22,692 nucleotides of DNA, from positions 1-22,692 of IMG/VR virus record IMGVR_UViG_3300023181_000081; one strand, written 5' to 3'. The position numbers were made by a program, and so were the translations under genes. Positions 1 to 18,289 of the stretch are shown here, one piece after another (within the stretch, counting starts at the first letter, position 1; each line of letters begins with the position of its first letter). The DNA comes from a virus. The notes under the pieces are model-generated. The model did not search any database, was not told where the DNA came from, and worked only from the letters and a program-made list of their open reading frames with translations.

Positions 1-1
1 A

Positions 2-406
2 GAAATTGAAACCGCTTTAATAAACGAGGCTAAGAAGCGTGGGTATAATCCTTTAAGCAAAATAATTGATGTTTACGATAACGAAACTGAAATATTAGGC
101 CAAGAAAATATATTCTACCAACATGATAGGCTTTGGTACAATTCTGAGTGTTGCTTATTCAATAACGGCATCTGGGCAGAAATAATCGATCCTGCTAAAG
201 AGGAAATTGATTGGAGTAAACCAGGGCAGTTAGTTAGTCACGAACAATATAACAGAATTATATATACCGATGGTAACCATTCAGAAAAAACATTTAAAGG
301 AACTTTAATAGTTACGGATGGTTCTTTCAAATTAGGTTACGACGTAGATTGGGGCAAACATCATTATAAACTATACACAGGCCAACCCATAACCCTAAGC
401 AACTAA
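2..406 (+). CDS. Hypothetical protein, 5' end cut by window edge
   Basis: An open frame enters from the left edge and stops with TAA at 404-406, giving 134 residues without their N-terminus. The product is soluble-looking and rich in Trp, Tyr, Asp and Glu. It contains IDWSKPGQLV near residues 73-82 and ends in a probable beta-rich stretch, DGSFKLGYDVDWGKHHYKLY. I do not recognise a family. It is the first of a run of small plus-strand genes, and the next gene starts 3 bases after its stop, so the two are probably co-transcribed. An uninterrupted frame with phage-like codon use and tight spacing supports a real gene. Function is unknown. Confidence 0.75.
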   Translation, partial: EIETALINEAKKRGYNPLSKIIDVYDNETEILGQENIFYQHDRLWYNSECCLFNNGIWAEIIDPAKEEIDWSKPGQLVSHEQYNRIIYTDGNHSEKTFKGTLIVTDGSFKLGYDVDWGKHHYKLYTGQPITLSN

Positions 407-11911: not shown

Positions 11912-14900
11912 ATGGCTAAAGAACTTATATCCTACGTAGAAGCAGGGGCAACGGCTGAACTACAAAAAGGAATTAAAAACATAAAGCAATTAAATACTGA
12001 ATTATTGAAATCAGTAGAGAACGCTAATAAAATAAGTGAAGCTTTTAGAAATATAAGAGTTCCAAGCCAAGCACGTGGTGTAATCACACAACTTAATGCT
12101 GCTGTATTAGCTAATAATCAATTAATGCAGCAACAAATAGCATTAAATGCTGCACTTGCTAATAGTATTACAGCCACTAATGCCGCAACAACCCGCAATA
12201 CACAGGCTCGAGCTGTTAATAATCAACGCACACAGGAAGAAATAACAAACACACGACTATTAACCGCCAATGCTTCAAGGGCTGCACAGGCTAATAGCAC
12301 TTTTGCAAGCTCTTACGAAAGATTATCAGCGCAACAAAATATAGCATCAAGGAGAGTACAGGACTTAATCGCACGCGGACGAACAGCAGAGCAAACGCAG
12401 CGACAATATAACAGGGAGTTAGCATTAGCGCAAAGGCAATTTGATACTTTAAATGTAAGGGTTCTTGCAGCTGATAGAGCAGTAGGCAGGTTTAATAGAA
12501 ATGTAGGTAATTACCCTGCTCAGGCCGCAAGGGGATTAAAAGACCTTATAGCCGCTTTTGGTGTTGTAGGTGGTGTTACTGCATTTGCTGCGATTACAAA
12601 AGATATATTTAACACTACCAAAGAATTACAATCACTTGACTTTGCTTTAAAGCAGGTAATTGGTAGTAATGAATTATTCGGGCAATCACAGGCTTTTTTA
12701 CAACGTATATCAGAAGCATACGGTATAGAAATAAAAGGTCTTACAAGGTCTTATACTGGGTTTTATGCTGCTTCAAAAAACGCTATTGAGTCGGGTGCTA
12801 TAACAGCAGAGCAAATTAACCAAATATTTGAATCTGTATCTAAAGCATCGGGCGCTATGGGCTTATCTGTAGACCAACAGCAAGGCGCGTTTTTAGCTTT
12901 ACAACAGATGATTAGTAAGGGGAATGTACAGGCAGAAGAAATACGTGGTCAGTTAGCCGAACGTTTGCCTGGTGCTTTTGGCATTCTTGCTAAATCTATG
13001 GGAGTTACTGAAATACAGTTAAACAAACTATTAAAAGATGGTAAAGTATTGGCAGCAGAAGTACTGCCTGCATTTGCAGCTGAACTTGAAAAAGCGTATG
13101 GGGTTGAAAATCTAACAAGGGTTGAGAACCTAACAGCCGAAACCACACGTTTAGGAAATGCGTGGACTGAATTTATAAGGGCTTTAAATGACGGGGATGG
13201 TACATTTAGTAGAATACTTGTTGGTTTAATAGCTGATGTTAGAGAAGCTTTGCAATTTTATTCTGAACTTCTAAAATCTGAAAAAACAAAGATAAATGAA
13301 ACTTCTGATAAAGTAAGAACAAGAGCTTATGAGCTTCAAATGCAACAATTAAAAGACATTGAAGAGCAAACACGTAAAAATTATGCCGCGGAAGCTTTAG
13401 ATTCTACTAATGATAAATTGAGAAAGTTAACCGAACAAAACAATGCTATAAAAGAAAACATAAGATTATTAGAGGAATCTAAGAAGAAAGCTCTTGAAAA
13501 CGATTATATGTTCGGTTTGTCTAAACCTGTAAGAACATTAAAGGCTGGTATAGCTACCGAAAATAAAGACTTAGCAGCAAATCAAAATGAATTAGCGATG
13601 TTGCAGGGTTCACGAAAAGCGTGGGAAGAAATATTAAAAGTTCAAAAAAAAGTAGATTATGTAGGTGCAGGCAGAGTAAAAAAACAAAAGCAGGATATAG
13701 ATTACCTGCATGAAATATATTTGCTTCAAAAACAAAATACCGAAAACCAAATATCAGATCAAGACAAAATCATGTCTGATGAAGAAAAAAACTACGATAA
13801 GCGTTTAGAGGCTGCAAATAATTACTTCTTTCAAAAAGATGCTTTGTTAAAGCTTGACCATGATGAGGAAGTAAGGCTAAACCAACTGAATTATGCTAAT
13901 CAAAAGGAAACCTATACAAAAGCTATCGCGGATGGCACTGCTACTTATGAAAACCTAAGACAATTAAAATACCAGTATCAGATTAAGGCGGCAAAGATAG
14001 ATTCTGACTATGAAGATAAAAAGGCTCAATTGGCTATTGAAAATGCTAAAAGACTGCAAGGCGTTTTATTAGATATACAGGCGCAGAAATCAAGGAATGA
14101 TTTAAACAGGGTTAAATTAGGCAATACAAGTGAACAAACAAGCTTATTTGATAGTGTTACCGGCTCAACCTCATTAAAGCAGTTTGCAGAACTTGAAAAT
14201 AAGTTAAGGGATATAAACAGCGCACAACAGGATGCTGAAATTGGCCTACTGAATGTTGATATTAAGAGAAATCTACAAGAGCAGGCACGAATTAAGATGC
14301 AAGGCGGTAGTGTTGCAAATAATCAAAAGCTTTTAGAATTGCAAAAACAGCAAATTGCATTGGAGCAAAATTTAGCTGATATTGATAAAGAAAGAGCAGA
14401 TAGTGTGGCACAGTTGTATAATGAGATGAAGCAAGCTACTACTGATTATTTGCAATCAATAACGCAAGGAGTATTTTCTGATTCGGGTTTTAGCAGTTTA
14501 GGTAAAATGTTTGACCAAGTTACTTATACAATAATAAATGCATCGGGAGAAATAGAAACAAAAGTAGGCAGCACATTCAGTAAGATGTTTGACCAGGCTC
14601 AAACAACCACAGAAAAAATAGCGGTAGCTTTTCAAACAATGGGCGATACATTGCAAGAAGTGTTTAATTTTCTTAACCAAAACCGACAGGCAGCGTTTGA
14701 TAAAGAGAACGCAGATGCAGAGCGTATGTTTGAGATACGTAAAAAATACGCAGGGGATAGTACCGAAGCACAGGCGGATTTAGAACGTCAATTAGAAGAT
14801 AAGAAGCGCGATATACGTATAAGAGAGGCTAAGGCAGCAAAAGAAGCTGCATTGTTTAATATAGCTGTTAATACAGCGCAGGCTGTTGTTGCTGCTCTTG

Positions 14901-15379
14901 CTACTGTGCCGCCAAACATAGGTCTATCTATTGCTGTAGGGGCAATTGGATTAGCACAAGGCATAGCAGTTGCATCAAGACCATTACCGGCTTATAAAGA
15001 TGGAACAAATTACCATAAAGGAGGTGCTGCATTAGTTGGGGATGGTGGCAAGAATGAAGTTGTATGGCAACCAAGCCACGGCTATTCGATTACCCCAAAC
15101 ACTAATACTATTATGGACTTACAAAAAGGCTCAAAAGTTTATCCGGATATAGCCAGTAGTGGTTTATTAAATTCAGGATTACCGCTTATGAATGTGCCAA
15201 GCAAAGGACTTACGGAGGAACAAATGGATAGGATTATGGCAAGGCATTTAGGCAGTTCATCGAGTGTAAATATAAACTTTGATGAAAGGGGTTACAGCAA
15301 GTTCCAGAAAAAAGCCAATTCTAAAACCATAAGTCATAATAACAGGATTTCTTTTAAAGGAAATGTAATAAGAGGTTAA
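11912..15379 (+). CDS. Tail tape measure protein, 1155 aa
   Basis: This is the longest gene in the window. The protein fills the tail lumen, sets tail length and is released at infection. The first 200 residues are Gln/Asn/Ala-rich coiled helix. Residues about 240-400 carry the conserved tape-measure domain, with QQMISKGNVQAEEIRGQLAE, then RLPGAF and VLPAFAAELEKAYG. Long helices follow, then two hydrophobic stretches at about 976-1025 that may insert into the host membrane. The C-terminus has GGAALVGDGGKNEVVWQPSHGY, a pattern common at tape-measure ends. By the rule of roughly 0.15 nm per residue, tail length would be near 170 nm. Its TAA shares bases with the stop of the convergent lipoprotein gene. 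Confidence 0.93.
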   Translation: MAKELISYVEAGATAELQKGIKNIKQLNTELLKSVENANKISEAFRNIRVPSQARGVITQLNAAVLANNQLMQQQIALNAALANSITATNAATTRNTQARAVNNQRTQEEITNTRLLTANASRAAQANSTFASSYERLSAQQNIASRRVQDLIARGRTAEQTQRQYNRELALAQRQFDTLNVRVLAADRAVGRFNRNVGNYPAQAARGLKDLIAAFGVVGGVTAFAAITKDIFNTTKELQSLDFALKQVIGSNELFGQSQAFLQRISEAYGIEIKGLTRSYTGFYAASKNAIESGAITAEQINQIFESVSKASGAMGLSVDQQQGAFLALQQMISKGNVQAEEIRGQLAERLPGAFGILAKSMGVTEIQLNKLLKDGKVLAAEVLPAFAAELEKAYGVENLTRVENLTAETTRLGNAWTEFIRALNDGDGTFSRILVGLIADVREALQFYSELLKSEKTKINETSDKVRTRAYELQMQQLKDIEEQTRKNYAAEALDSTNDKLRKLTEQNNAIKENIRLLEESKKKALENDYMFGLSKPVRTLKAGIATENKDLAANQNELAMLQGSRKAWEEILKVQKKVDYVGAGRVKKQKQDIDYLHEIYLLQKQNTENQISDQDKIMSDEEKNYDKRLEAANNYFFQKDALLKLDHDEEVRLNQLNYANQKETYTKAIADGTATYENLRQLKYQYQIKAAKIDSDYEDKKAQLAIENAKRLQGVLLDIQAQKSRNDLNRVKLGNTSEQTSLFDSVTGSTSLKQFAELENKLRDINSAQQDAEIGLLNVDIKRNLQEQARIKMQGGSVANNQKLLELQKQQIALEQNLADIDKERADSVAQLYNEMKQATTDYLQSITQGVFSDSGFSSLGKMFDQVTYTIINASGEIETKVGSTFSKMFDQAQTTTEKIAVAFQTMGDTLQEVFNFLNQNRQAAFDKENADAERMFEIRKKYAGDSTEAQADLERQLEDKKRDIRIREAKAAKEAALFNIAVNTAQAVVAALATVPPNIGLSIAVGAIGLAQGIAVASRPLPAYKDGTNYHKGGAALVGDGGKNEVVWQPSHGYSITPNTNTIMDLQKGSKVYPDIASSGLLNSGLPLMNVPSKGLTEEQMDRIMARHLGSSSSVNINFDERGYSKFQKKANSKTISHNNRISFKGNVIRG

Positions 15380-15561
15380 CAATCAATGTTAGCCTTTGCC
15401 TGTTCGTATTGTCTACGCAAGTCACGTATAGCATCAGGGTTGCCATTCGCGTTTTTAATGCTGTTGTTGTATTGATTTAATAACGCCTTTGATTCGTCTT
15501 CGCAATCTTTACTACACGAAACAAAAAATAAAAATAGGATTGTAATTAGTAATAATTTCAT
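15376..15561 (-). CDS. Small lipoprotein, possible superinfection-exclusion moron, 61 aa
   Basis: This is the only gene on the minus strand. It encodes 61 residues with a lipoprotein signal: hydrophobic MKLLLITILFLFFVSC, lipid-acceptor Cys at 16. The following SKDCEDE is acidic and resembles the export signal that sends Bacteroidota lipoproteins to the cell surface. The mature part is probably a helical hairpin (about 21-38 and 43-60, turn NANGNP) with C20 and C61 placed so that a disulphide could close it. It ends at the tape-measure stop and has its own -7 box at 15593-15600. Small lipoproteins near tail genes can block DNA injection by related phages, as Ltp of phage TP-J34 does. That role here is inference. 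Confidence 0.75.
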   Translation of the reverse strand: MKLLLITILFLFFVSCSKDCEDESKALLNQYNNSIKNANGNPDAIRDLRRQYEQAKANIDC

Positions 15562-15592
15562 AAGTAATAGTTTAAGGGTTTTTTATTCTAAG

Positions 15593-15600
15593 CAAAGATA
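15593..15600 (-). promoter_or_regulatory. Minus-strand -7 box for the lipoprotein gene
   Basis: On the minus strand the sequence reads TATCTTTG, matching TAnnTTTG, 31 bases before the lipoprotein ATG. It is followed by CT, as in TTTGCT elsewhere in this window. The -33 half is not clear. Expression separate from the late tail operon is therefore likely, as expected for a gene active in a lysogen or early in infection. Confidence 0.5.
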
Positions 15601-15611
15601 TGCAAATTCAA

Positions 15612-15619
15612 TACCTTTG
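15612..15619 (+). promoter_or_regulatory. Plus-strand -7 box for the tail-tip gene
   Basis: TACCTTTG matches TAnnTTTG and lies 15 bases before the ATG at 15635, so the leader would be very short. No clear -33 TTG is present. It faces away from the minus-strand box at 15593-15600, making a divergent promoter pair only 11 bases apart. Confidence 0.45.
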
Positions 15620-15634
15620 ATAAAACAAATATAA

Positions 15635-18289
15635 ATGATAAAGCACTATTTCGAGTTTATAACAACGCAGCGCGGATTAATTCAGGTTGATGAGCCTATT
15701 GGTTTTGACAAGGTGGGTTTTTCTATTAAACAAGATGATAGCAGAAAAGGGCGCGATGTAAGCAGTAGTGGAAACGCGGATGCTAAATATAAAATGGTTT
15801 TCTATAACCAAAGGTACGGCTATGCTATAAACGAATTAAAGCTTGAATTTTCAAGGTTTGGCGATCAGGCTAATGTTATATACCATCAGGACTACGGAAG
15901 TGGCATAGTGCCTTTTGGTAATATTGATATGCAAACATTTACTGATTACATTGATAGGGTAGAGTTTGTTGTAGTTGCATTAAGTGCCGAAAGTGAGTAC
16001 AAAACAACATTTGATTTACCTACAAACTTATTTAGCCCTACTGATTTAAAAGGAAATACAATCACACCATGCCAACCTGTAAGAGTATTAGTGCCGGTAA
16101 AACCTATTTATGCTAAATCCGTATGGGAAAACACATCACAAGCTACAGAATTGTTTTTACGAGGGGCTGCACTCGCGCCTGGCTTCTTTAATTCAATAAA
16201 AAACCTAACTACAAGCGAAATAACAGCATCGTTAAGCGGTAATTTATACGATACATCTATCCCTACACAGGGAACAACGAATTATCCTAATGAACTTACT
16301 AATTTCAAGATAATAACAGCAACAACTAATCTAAGGAATGTTAAGGCAAAGTTTCAGCTTAAAATTAAAAGCGAAAACACAAATAACACAGGTGGACAAT
16401 TTAGTATTAGGGGTGTTTTTGGTATTGGTAAAACTACAGATGGTCAAGCTGAATTTGCAAGGGCTACAAATCCCCAAAATGGGATTATATTCTACAATAC
16501 AGGGGTTTTAGGTACATCATACCTACAAAGTTATGAGTATGATGGCGTTTTAAATATAGATTTACCAAATATGAATAGGGGGGATGTTTTGTATTTTGTA
16601 TTTTATCATGCATCGGTAGGGGATAACGCAATTATAGTGTCTAAAACTACTATATACAATTCAAAACTAACTATAACAGCTAACCAGGTCACATACAATA
16701 GAGTAATTGAAGCAGTAAGATACATTGATGCAATAAATTACGCGGTTAAATCAGCATCAGGCTTGGATGTTTCAGCACCAATGTATGAACAAGGTGGCGA
16801 AGATTACGACCAGTTTATAACAAACGCCCAATTGATGCGAGGTTTAAAAGAACGACCTTTTTATATTTCAAATAAAGATATTATAGAGCATATACGTAAT
16901 GAGAAAAATGGGGATTACGAAGTTACTCCAACACCCTCAATATTTACAGGCAAGTATAAAGACTTTTATAGGGATGAGTTAATAGGTTTTTATGACAGAT
17001 TACCACGCGAAGAGGACAATGTAGAAGCAAATCCAAGATATGCATATAATCAACTGAAAATAGAATACAAAAACTACGCAGCCCAAAAAGAAAATGAAGA
17101 TGGTAATACATTAGATACTGTTCATGGTAGCGCTGTATATACCACTCCTAAACTAAGAGTAAACAATAGCCGGGATATATCTGTAAACTTTATTAGGGAT
17201 GCTATTTTATGGCAGCAATATTTAGATAAGACCAATGATTTAAAAGACTCGCAAGCCACGCAGGATGATGATAAGGTATTTATAGTAGACTGTATAGCTA
17301 ACACAGGCGGCAATGTATTTACTGAAAATGATTTCTTTGAGCATGCCGGCAATGGAAATACTTTAATATTAAAAAACAACTCATCATTTAGCTTTGTAGG
17401 TTTAGGTATTGATGTTTTAAGCCAGTTTATAATAAACAGCAATGAAAATAGAGGTACTTACATAGTATCAGAGGTAAATCCACAGCAATTGACAATGTTC
17501 CGTACTGATGGAGTAACAGTAAACAGCTATACAGAAGTAAATACAAATTATACTTACAGAATATCAGAAACAAATGTACCTTTTAAAGCAAGGACAAATG
17601 AGGGATTCGGAGTGTTTAATAATTTAGATCCGCAAGGCGCGATTAATACAAGATTTACATTAGCAAGGATATTAAGAGATAGCTATAGTGAGGAACTTGC
17701 TACAAATGTTCTATACTCTAATGGTTTGCCGATACGTAACGCTTCATACATGTATAATCCGACAGCTACGACTAAATATTTAGATAATGAAGTTATAATT
17801 GAGGGCGGTAATTATAATCCGTTAGGCGCTTTGGTAAACGGTAAGGTTCATGATATAAAACTAATACTTACTTATGCCGAATATATGGATTTAGTCTATA
17901 AGATTAGAACTGTTAGGGGTTATATAAAAACAGTAGGCTTTAATGGTTTAACACTAAGTGGATTTATAAAGTCCATAGAATGGCAACCGACAAGTAAAGG
18001 TATTGAGGATATAGAATTATTTGATGGGGAAGCCGATGTTATTTTAGAGGAAAAATATACAGAATTTGATATCTACATTTTCCACAACGACACAACAGTA
18101 ATAATAAATGATGTAAATCAACCAAGCGGTATAACATGGTATGTAGACGAGTATGGTTTTGTTACTTTATATGACGTTGTAGGGATGGAATTAGAGGTAA
18201 AGGTATTATTTGACAGGATAAAGATAAACAACTCGCAAAAAGCCTCTAATGCGCTTGAAATAGAGCGTTCGTTAAGCTTAATACAATAG
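15635..18289 (+). CDS. Large tail-tip / baseplate-like structural protein, 884 aa
   Basis: The 884-residue product follows the tape-measure gene, the place of distal tail and tip proteins in siphoviruses. Residues 1-130 form a beta-rich N-terminal module. About 185-350 look like an inserted beta-sandwich (rich in Asn, Thr, Gly), possibly a carbohydrate-binding add-on. The region after 355 returns to the main protein, with QFITNAQLMRGLKERPFYIS near 393-412. The last 100 residues are again beta strands (FDIYIFHNDTTVIIND). I do not recognise a named family and see no catalytic motif. A role in tail-tip assembly or receptor binding is inferred from position and size. ATG at 15635 has its own -7 box 15 bases upstream. 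Confidence 0.65.
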   Translation: MIKHYFEFITTQRGLIQVDEPIGFDKVGFSIKQDDSRKGRDVSSSGNADAKYKMVFYNQRYGYAINELKLEFSRFGDQANVIYHQDYGSGIVPFGNIDMQTFTDYIDRVEFVVVALSAESEYKTTFDLPTNLFSPTDLKGNTITPCQPVRVLVPVKPIYAKSVWENTSQATELFLRGAALAPGFFNSIKNLTTSEITASLSGNLYDTSIPTQGTTNYPNELTNFKIITATTNLRNVKAKFQLKIKSENTNNTGGQFSIRGVFGIGKTTDGQAEFARATNPQNGIIFYNTGVLGTSYLQSYEYDGVLNIDLPNMNRGDVLYFVFYHASVGDNAIIVSKTTIYNSKLTITANQVTYNRVIEAVRYIDAINYAVKSASGLDVSAPMYEQGGEDYDQFITNAQLMRGLKERPFYISNKDIIEHIRNEKNGDYEVTPTPSIFTGKYKDFYRDELIGFYDRLPREEDNVEANPRYAYNQLKIEYKNYAAQKENEDGNTLDTVHGSAVYTTPKLRVNNSRDISVNFIRDAILWQQYLDKTNDLKDSQATQDDDKVFIVDCIANTGGNVFTENDFFEHAGNGNTLILKNNSSFSFVGLGIDVLSQFIINSNENRGTYIVSEVNPQQLTMFRTDGVTVNSYTEVNTNYTYRISETNVPFKARTNEGFGVFNNLDPQGAINTRFTLARILRDSYSEELATNVLYSNGLPIRNASYMYNPTATTKYLDNEVIIEGGNYNPLGALVNGKVHDIKLILTYAEYMDLVYKIRTVRGYIKTVGFNGLTLSGFIKSIEWQPTSKGIEDIELFDGEADVILEEKYTEFDIYIFHNDTTVIINDVNQPSGITWYVDEYGFVTLYDVVGMELEVKVLFDRIKINNSQKASNALEIERSLSLIQ

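What the first reader, a model, noticed from the sequence alone, without database searches (positions are those of the whole stretch)
15376..15634. Surface-type lipoprotein gene inserted antisense beside the tape-measure gene
The only minus-strand gene in the window encodes a 61-residue lipoprotein with an acidic stretch after the lipid Cys, like the surface-export signals of Bacteroidota lipoproteins, and a possible disulphide-closed helical hairpin (C20-C61). It has its own -7 box. Phage lipoproteins such as TP-J34 Ltp or T5 Llp block superinfection, and Ltp acts on the tape measure. A gene touching the tape-measure gene may travel with it as a matched self-exclusion unit. A minimal exclusion protein of this size in a Bacteroidota phage would be notable.
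Basis: partly seen in the sequence, partly recalled or inferred. Interest (0 to 1): 0.6.

Follow-up and report, generated by a model that had tools for sequence, protein, structure and literature searches.

The report
Phage lipoprotein resembling tape-measure hairpin
A tailed phage carries a tiny gene for a membrane-anchored helical hairpin that resembles a conserved piece of the phage's own tape-measure protein, which suggests (untested) that it blocks rival phages from injecting their DNA.

Summary
A 61-residue lipoprotein gene lies at 15376-15561 (-), with its stop codon overlapping that of the tape-measure (TMP) gene. It is real: 13 phage contigs carry it (11 distinct proteins), with the lipid Cys, C20 and C61 invariant, and AlphaFold gives a helical hairpin. 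Adjacency is not conserved: four copies lie antisense by TMP, eight upstream of terminase, one in an early region. Instead, the mature hairpin matches one site in the TMPs, the C-terminal hairpin just before the hydrophobic segment. Profile comparison gives E 2.7e-9, against 0.0058 for the best of about 370 other protein families from these phages. The reciprocal search finds only the lipoproteins. No similar stretch turned up in 177,635 PDB sequences. The surface-export signal is not conserved, and the promoter box is no better than chance. The best reading is a lipid-anchored, disulphide-clasped stand-in for the TMP hairpin that interferes with DNA injection by superinfecting siphophages, analogous to Ltp or Llp but not a member of either family. 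Shown: gene, family, fold, TMP resemblance. Inferred: exclusion and mechanism. Matching to each phage's own TMP was tested and not established.

The parts
15376..15561 (-). Lipoprotein gene, 61 aa precursor: signal peptide 1-15, lipid Cys16, mature 46-aa helical hairpin with invariant C20 and C61
   Evidence: ORF; 13-locus family; AlphaFold hairpin; purifying selection in close relatives
15593..15629 (-). Possible Bacteroidota-type promoter TTTG-N25-TATCTTTG upstream of the lipoprotein gene
   Evidence: pattern present; number in the window not above chance, spacer long; weak
11912..15379 (+). Tape-measure protein gene, 1155 aa; stop codon overlaps that of the lipoprotein gene
   Evidence: Pfam TMP_3 E 3.6e-31; PHROG tape-measure phrog_18891 E 7e-102
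14699..14815 (+). TMP helical hairpin (about residues 930-968) that the lipoprotein's mature domain resembles, followed by the hydrophobic segment of about residues 975-1020
   Evidence: 11-lipoprotein profile hits this site, E 0.0018; profile-profile E 1.5e-8 to 2.7e-9; AlphaFold helix-turn-helix with the turn at the aligned position
15635..18289 (+). Next tail gene (884 aa, about 880 aa across relatives), normally directly adjacent to TMP; flanks the insertion site
   Evidence: in most TMP loci it follows TMP with no gene between

Best explanation
The gene encodes a small phage lipoprotein whose mature part is a two-helix hairpin, probably clasped by a C20-C61 disulphide and held on an envelope membrane by its lipid. 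The hairpin resembles the conserved C-terminal hairpin of siphophage tape-measure proteins that lies just before their hydrophobic segment. Most likely it acts during infection as an injection-blocking (superinfection-exclusion) protein: it offers incoming TMPs a false partner hairpin, or occupies the envelope factor that this hairpin needs, so that the TMP cannot build its conduit. Shown: gene, family, fold prediction, TMP resemblance. Inferred: oxidised state, location, exclusion activity, and which of the two modes applies.
For: The lipoprotein HMM (6 members) against 1,152 phage proteins: apart from the family itself, the hits better than E 1 are TMPs, almost all at the same hairpin (best E 1.2e-6). 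The TMP-hairpin HMM (53 TMPs) against the same set: apart from TMPs, including one TMP-length 1,466-aa protein, only lipoproteins score, all six members at E 4.5e-7 to 0.017, next hit 0.73. Profile-profile E 2.7e-9 over 41 ungapped columns, against at least 0.012 in TMP windows that do not overlap the hairpin core, 0.033 for the reversed profile and 0.0058 for the best of about 370 other protein clusters. Across 46 phage records the 11-member profile hits the TMP site in more than 20 records; other hits are mainly signal peptides. A TMP-only profile retrieves lipoproteins in phages not used to build it (E 7e-5 and 9e-4). PDB background, 177,635 sequences: nothing above 16-19 bits. Invariant C20 and C61, plus an extra Cys pair flanking the turn in L107 and L109, fit a hairpin locked by disulphides in an exported compartment. 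Known injection-stage exclusion or defence proteins act on TMPs: Ltp (PMC3952083), HK97 gp15 (PMC10883804), SNIPE (PMC13190303). T5 Llp is a similar-sized lipoprotein with a terminal Cys-Cys clasp (PMC9586334).
Against: No functional data exist. The lipoprotein is not specially matched to its own TMP: the own TMP ranks 25 of 54 for the window, 1 of 54 for G007, 52 of 54 for L007. Short helical hairpins converge easily. The TMP-like signal in the window's own TMP is modest (E 0.0018). None of the eight records searched, including the window, has a tyrosine integrase, so exclusion would act during a lytic cycle rather than from a prophage, unless the fragmentary contigs hide one. Regulation is unknown.
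Confidence: 0.4

Rival explanations
1. A small exclusion lipoprotein of the Llp/Cor kind that blocks an outer-membrane receptor; the resemblance to TMP is only a shared helical-hairpin style.
For: Size, lipid anchor and terminal disulphide layout match T5 Llp (Cys11-Cys58; PMC9586334). A weak PHROG Cor match, E 0.076, two members.
Against: The TMP resemblance is reciprocal and site-specific. The Cor PHROG disappears when the signal peptide is removed.
Confidence: 0.2
2. An outer-membrane spanin subunit (Rz1-like) or another lysis lipoprotein.
For: Length is like Rz1. Weak PHROG spanin matches (phrog_3001, E 0.011-0.021).
Against: Not significant. Not proline-rich. No overlapping inner-membrane spanin gene; found among small genes upstream of terminase or antisense to tail genes, with no lysis gene recognised beside it.
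Confidence: 0.12
3. An anti-defence decoy: it imitates the TMP hairpin to titrate a host envelope defence that senses incoming TMPs, protecting the phage's siblings.
For: Host defences that bind TMPs exist (SNIPE, PMC13190303). The mimicry is to TMPs in general rather than to the phage's own.
Against: SNIPE works at the inner membrane from the cytoplasmic side, where a lipidated exported protein would not reach. No such defence is known in the presumed Bacteroidota host.
Confidence: 0.1
4. An accessory lipoprotein with a host-directed function (envelope modification, plasmid-type entry exclusion); resemblance to TMP is chance convergence.
For: It sits among exchangeable small accessory genes. 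A weak tblastn match to a plasmid EexN-family entry-exclusion lipoprotein (E 0.2).
Against: No NCBIfam or Pfam family reaches significance. The TMP similarity exceeds every control by several orders of magnitude.
Confidence: 0.18

Closest known systems
Ltp of Streptococcus thermophilus phage TP-J34 (superinfection-exclusion lipoprotein acting on TMP)
   Same: Phage-encoded lipoprotein with a helical exported domain; the target class (C-terminal region of TMP) matches where the resemblance lies
   Different: Ltp has a serine-rich spacer and repeat domains (PMC3952083); here there is one 46-aa hairpin with cysteines, no spacer, no sequence similarity reported by any library, and the feature here is resemblance to TMP, not a shown interaction with it
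Llp of phage T5 / Cor family
   Same: About 60 residues, lipid-anchored, disulphide between a Cys near the N-terminus and one near the C-terminus (PMC9586334)
   Different: Llp binds the receptor FhuA, not TMP; PHROG Cor match only E 0.076 and lost without the signal peptide
HK97 gp15 and P22 SieA (injection-stage exclusion proteins)
   Same: Block DNA injection; [quoted passage not shown]
   Different: Inner-membrane proteins, not lipoproteins; unrelated in layout
EexN-family plasmid entry-exclusion lipoproteins
   Same: Small lipoprotein with cysteines; short local similarity (33% over 54 aa, E 0.2)
   Different: Not significant; no NCBIfam match
C-terminal hairpin of Bacteroidota-type siphophage tape-measure proteins
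   Same: Helix-turn-helix with aligned turn; profile E 2.7e-9; AlphaFold hairpins in both
   Different: In TMP it is internal, cysteine-free and precedes a hydrophobic segment; here it stands alone on a lipid anchor

Membership tests
Bacterial/phage lipoprotein (signal peptidase II type) | Positively charged start, hydrophobic stretch, lipobox ending in Cys | tested here: met
   Present in the window and relatives; the S-C of the lipobox is invariant in 11 sequences; L003 has an altered N-terminus but keeps VSC
Ltp-type exclusion lipoprotein | Sequence homology to Ltp repeat domains and serine-rich spacer | tested here: not met
   No Ltp-type family among the Pfam, NCBIfam or PHROG matches; single hairpin without spacer
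Ltp-type exclusion lipoprotein | Binds TMP and excludes superinfecting phage | not testable with these tools
   Needs binding and plating assays
Llp/Cor exclusion lipoproteins | Profile match to the Cor family | tested here: not met
   phrog_1119 E 0.076 in two members, gone with mature sequences
Llp/Cor exclusion lipoproteins | Terminal disulphide clasp | tested here: inconclusive
   C20 and C61 invariant in 11 sequences; disulphide not observed
Surface-exported Bacteroidota lipoprotein (LES) | C-X-K-(D/E)2-X after the lipid Cys | tested here: not met
   Window C-S-K-D-C-E; relatives differ
Rz1-like outer spanin | Proline-rich small lipoprotein paired with an overlapping i-spanin gene | tested here: not met
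   At most one proline in the mature part; neighbours show no spanin arrangement; PHROG spanin E no better than 0.011
EexN entry-exclusion lipoprotein | NCBIfam EexN match | tested here: not met
   No match at E up to 10; tblastn E 0.2 only
TMP-hairpin-like domain | Reciprocal profile similarity to the TMP C-terminal hairpin above controls | tested here: met

The most novel reading that the evidence does not exclude
A family of membrane-tethered, disulphide-clasped copies of the tape-measure C-terminal hairpin that phages use to jam the tape-measure machinery of competing siphophages: superinfection exclusion by mimicry of the injection protein itself.
Probability: 0.3. Interest if true: 0.8.

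Novelty: new variant of a known kind. Interest (0 to 1): 0.58.

Why it matters
How tape-measure proteins cross the Gram-negative envelope, and which part of them must be free to do so, is poorly known. A natural 46-residue protein that looks like one conserved TMP hairpin points at that hairpin as a working part of injection and gives a compact reagent to test it. It would also extend exclusion lipoproteins to Bacteroidota-type phages and add mimicry of the target to the known mechanisms.

Tried and rejected
Matched unit with TMP: rejected. Of 13 copies only four adjoin TMP. Co-segregation of lipoprotein type with TMP C-terminal type (window/G001 82-92% identical at the C-terminus and 10-23% over residues 1-880; L002/L005 94-100% over residues 926-1025): rejected as evidence, because flanking tail genes are shared too, so this reflects a swap of TMP bodies among relatives. 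Own-pair matching of lipoprotein and TMP hairpin: permutation p 0.014-0.07 on six or seven groups, own TMP rarely the best match: not established. Promoter: not above chance. Export signal: not conserved. Searches for homologues in cultured phages, plasmids (only E 0.2 or worse) and GTDB genomes (pattern-limited) found none. The iterated HMM drifted into TMPs; later work used fixed seed sets. PDB fold search with the hairpin gave nothing significant, as expected for a hairpin. Relatives by taxonomy could not be searched, because the window is a virus record.

Full report
What is there. The window is itself a whole IMG/VR virus contig of 22,692 bases. It carries, in one direction, terminase, portal, capsid and tail genes, including a 1,155-residue tape-measure protein, TMP. 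On the other strand, 15376-15561, is an ORF of 61 codons whose stop overlaps the TMP stop. It has a signal peptide and lipobox (FVSC), and a mature part of 46 residues with Cys at precursor positions 16, 20 and 61. Its promoter box exists but such boxes are not commoner than chance, and the spacing to a -33-like TTTG is 25 bases. The acidic stretch after the lipid Cys (SKDCEDE) does not meet the published minimal export signal K-(D/E)2 at the right position (PMC5080379).

It is a real gene with relatives. A direct single-sequence search found nothing, but TMP relatives L002 and L003 showed the same small gene beside TMP. Profile searches then extended the family to 13 contigs with 11 distinct proteins. 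S15, C16, C20, Y31, Q51, Y52 and C61 are invariant. In L107 and L109 an extra pair of cysteines flanks the turn (RCGGSSAC). Among L002, L003 and L005 pN/pS is 0.05-0.15; in the terminase-side clade it is higher, 0.6-0.9. AlphaFold gives a confident hairpin (helices 11-37 and 42-58). Together these fit an exported hairpin clasped by one or two disulphides; the disulphides themselves are inferred.

Where the genes sit. In four contigs (window, L002, L003, L005) the gene is antisense between TMP and the next tail gene. In six it lies immediately upstream of the terminase small-subunit gene (L100, L105-L109), in two in the block of small genes 4.5 kb or more upstream of terminase and 16-17 kb from TMP (L004, L007), and in one in an early region about 25 kb from TMP (G007). 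Most TMP loci have the roughly 880-residue tail gene directly after TMP; eight carry antisense insertions there, with different contents, and some of those genes are relatives of the lipoprotein's neighbours in L004 and L007. So the TMP 3' end is an accessory-gene hot spot and the window carries its smallest occupant.

The unexpected link to TMP. When the mature lipoprotein profile was run against the proteins of these phages, the first hits outside the family were TMPs, at one site. That site is a helical hairpin directly before the TMP hydrophobic segment, predicted by AlphaFold as helix-turn-helix with the turn where the lipoprotein's turn aligns. The reverse search with 53 TMP hairpins returned, among non-TMP proteins, only the lipoproteins, all six members then known; a 1,466-residue protein that also scored looks like an unlisted TMP. 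Profile against profile gives E 2.7e-9 over 41 ungapped columns; TMP windows away from the hairpin reach 0.012 at best, the reversed profile 0.033, and the best of about 370 other clusters 0.0058. With eleven members the profile hits the TMP site in more than 20 of 46 phage records, including the window's own TMP at 14699-14815 (E 0.0018); the few other hits are mainly signal peptides. A TMP-only profile finds lipoproteins in phages not used to build it. Among 177,635 PDB sequences nothing comparable appears. The resemblance is thus specific within what could be searched. Whether it is common descent or convergence cannot be decided: 41 residues of helix is little, and no large set of Bacteroidota proteomes could be searched.

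What it most likely does. TMPs of siphophages are thought to form the conduit for DNA across the periplasm, and several exclusion or defence proteins act on them: Ltp (PMC3952083), HK97 gp15 (PMC10883804), SNIPE (PMC13190303). T5 Llp shows that a lipoprotein of this size with a terminal disulphide can exclude phages, there by acting on the receptor (PMC9586334). A lipid-anchored imitation of the TMP hairpin is well placed either to pair with an incoming TMP or to compete for the envelope partner of that hairpin. I favour exclusion at the injection step (0.4). Similarity is not specific to the phage's own TMP, which suits either exclusion of other phages or a decoy for a host factor, and weakens a pure self-exclusion reading. 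Rivals are a receptor-blocking lipoprotein, a spanin, an anti-defence decoy, or an unrelated accessory function.

A check that changed my view. Lipoprotein carriers share nearly identical TMP C-termini joined to unrelated TMP bodies, which at first looked like co-inheritance with the lipoprotein. The neighbouring tail genes are shared as well, so it is simply a swap of the TMP body among related phages and says nothing about the lipoprotein.

Known versus new. By tested features it is not an Ltp, Cor/Llp, Rz1 or EexN family member. It works, if the model holds, like Ltp. The mimicry of a TMP hairpin by a free-standing lipoprotein was not found in the papers searched.

Noticed in passing
window 15379-15635; L002 9020-11820; L003 11651-12660; L005 6131-8292; L009 11510-14972; L010 3332-5318; L046 12650-15750; L060 12206-14471: The TMP / next-tail-gene junction is a hot spot for antisense accessory genes of varying content (possible HTH regulator in L005, possible HD-type hydrolase in L002, many unknowns), while most related phages have the two tail genes directly adjacent.
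   Followed up: partly
window 11912-15379 versus L083 7321-10566; L002 5580-9020 versus L005 8292-11528: TMP bodies are swapped between otherwise related tail modules: 82-92% (window/L083) or 94-100% (L002/L005) identity in the C-terminal hairpin and hydrophobic region, but mostly 5-25% in the body.
   Followed up: yes
L107 8001-8195; L109 1239-1433: Family members with a second cysteine pair flanking the hairpin turn (RCGGSSAC, SCGGSSTC), a possible second disulphide clasp.
   Followed up: partly
L003 11758-12490: In L003 the lipoprotein has lost its normal start and is joined to a roughly 45-residue foreign N-terminus, and a second, unrelated 120-aa lipoprotein gene lies between it and TMP.
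   Followed up: no
L060 12728-14326: A 532-aa lipoprotein with a zinc-protease-like HEMIH motif lies antisense next to a TMP gene.
   Followed up: no
window 1-406 and L009 11583-12863: A gene cut by the window's left end is related (40% identity) to the 426-aa gene in the TMP-side antisense insertion of L009, another sign of exchange between the pre-terminase block and the TMP hot spot.
   Followed up: no
L004 11619-11834; L007 8442-8660; L025 7545-8009; L035 9325-9714: Other small lipoprotein genes sit in the same accessory blocks of these phages, unrelated to the one studied.
   Followed up: no
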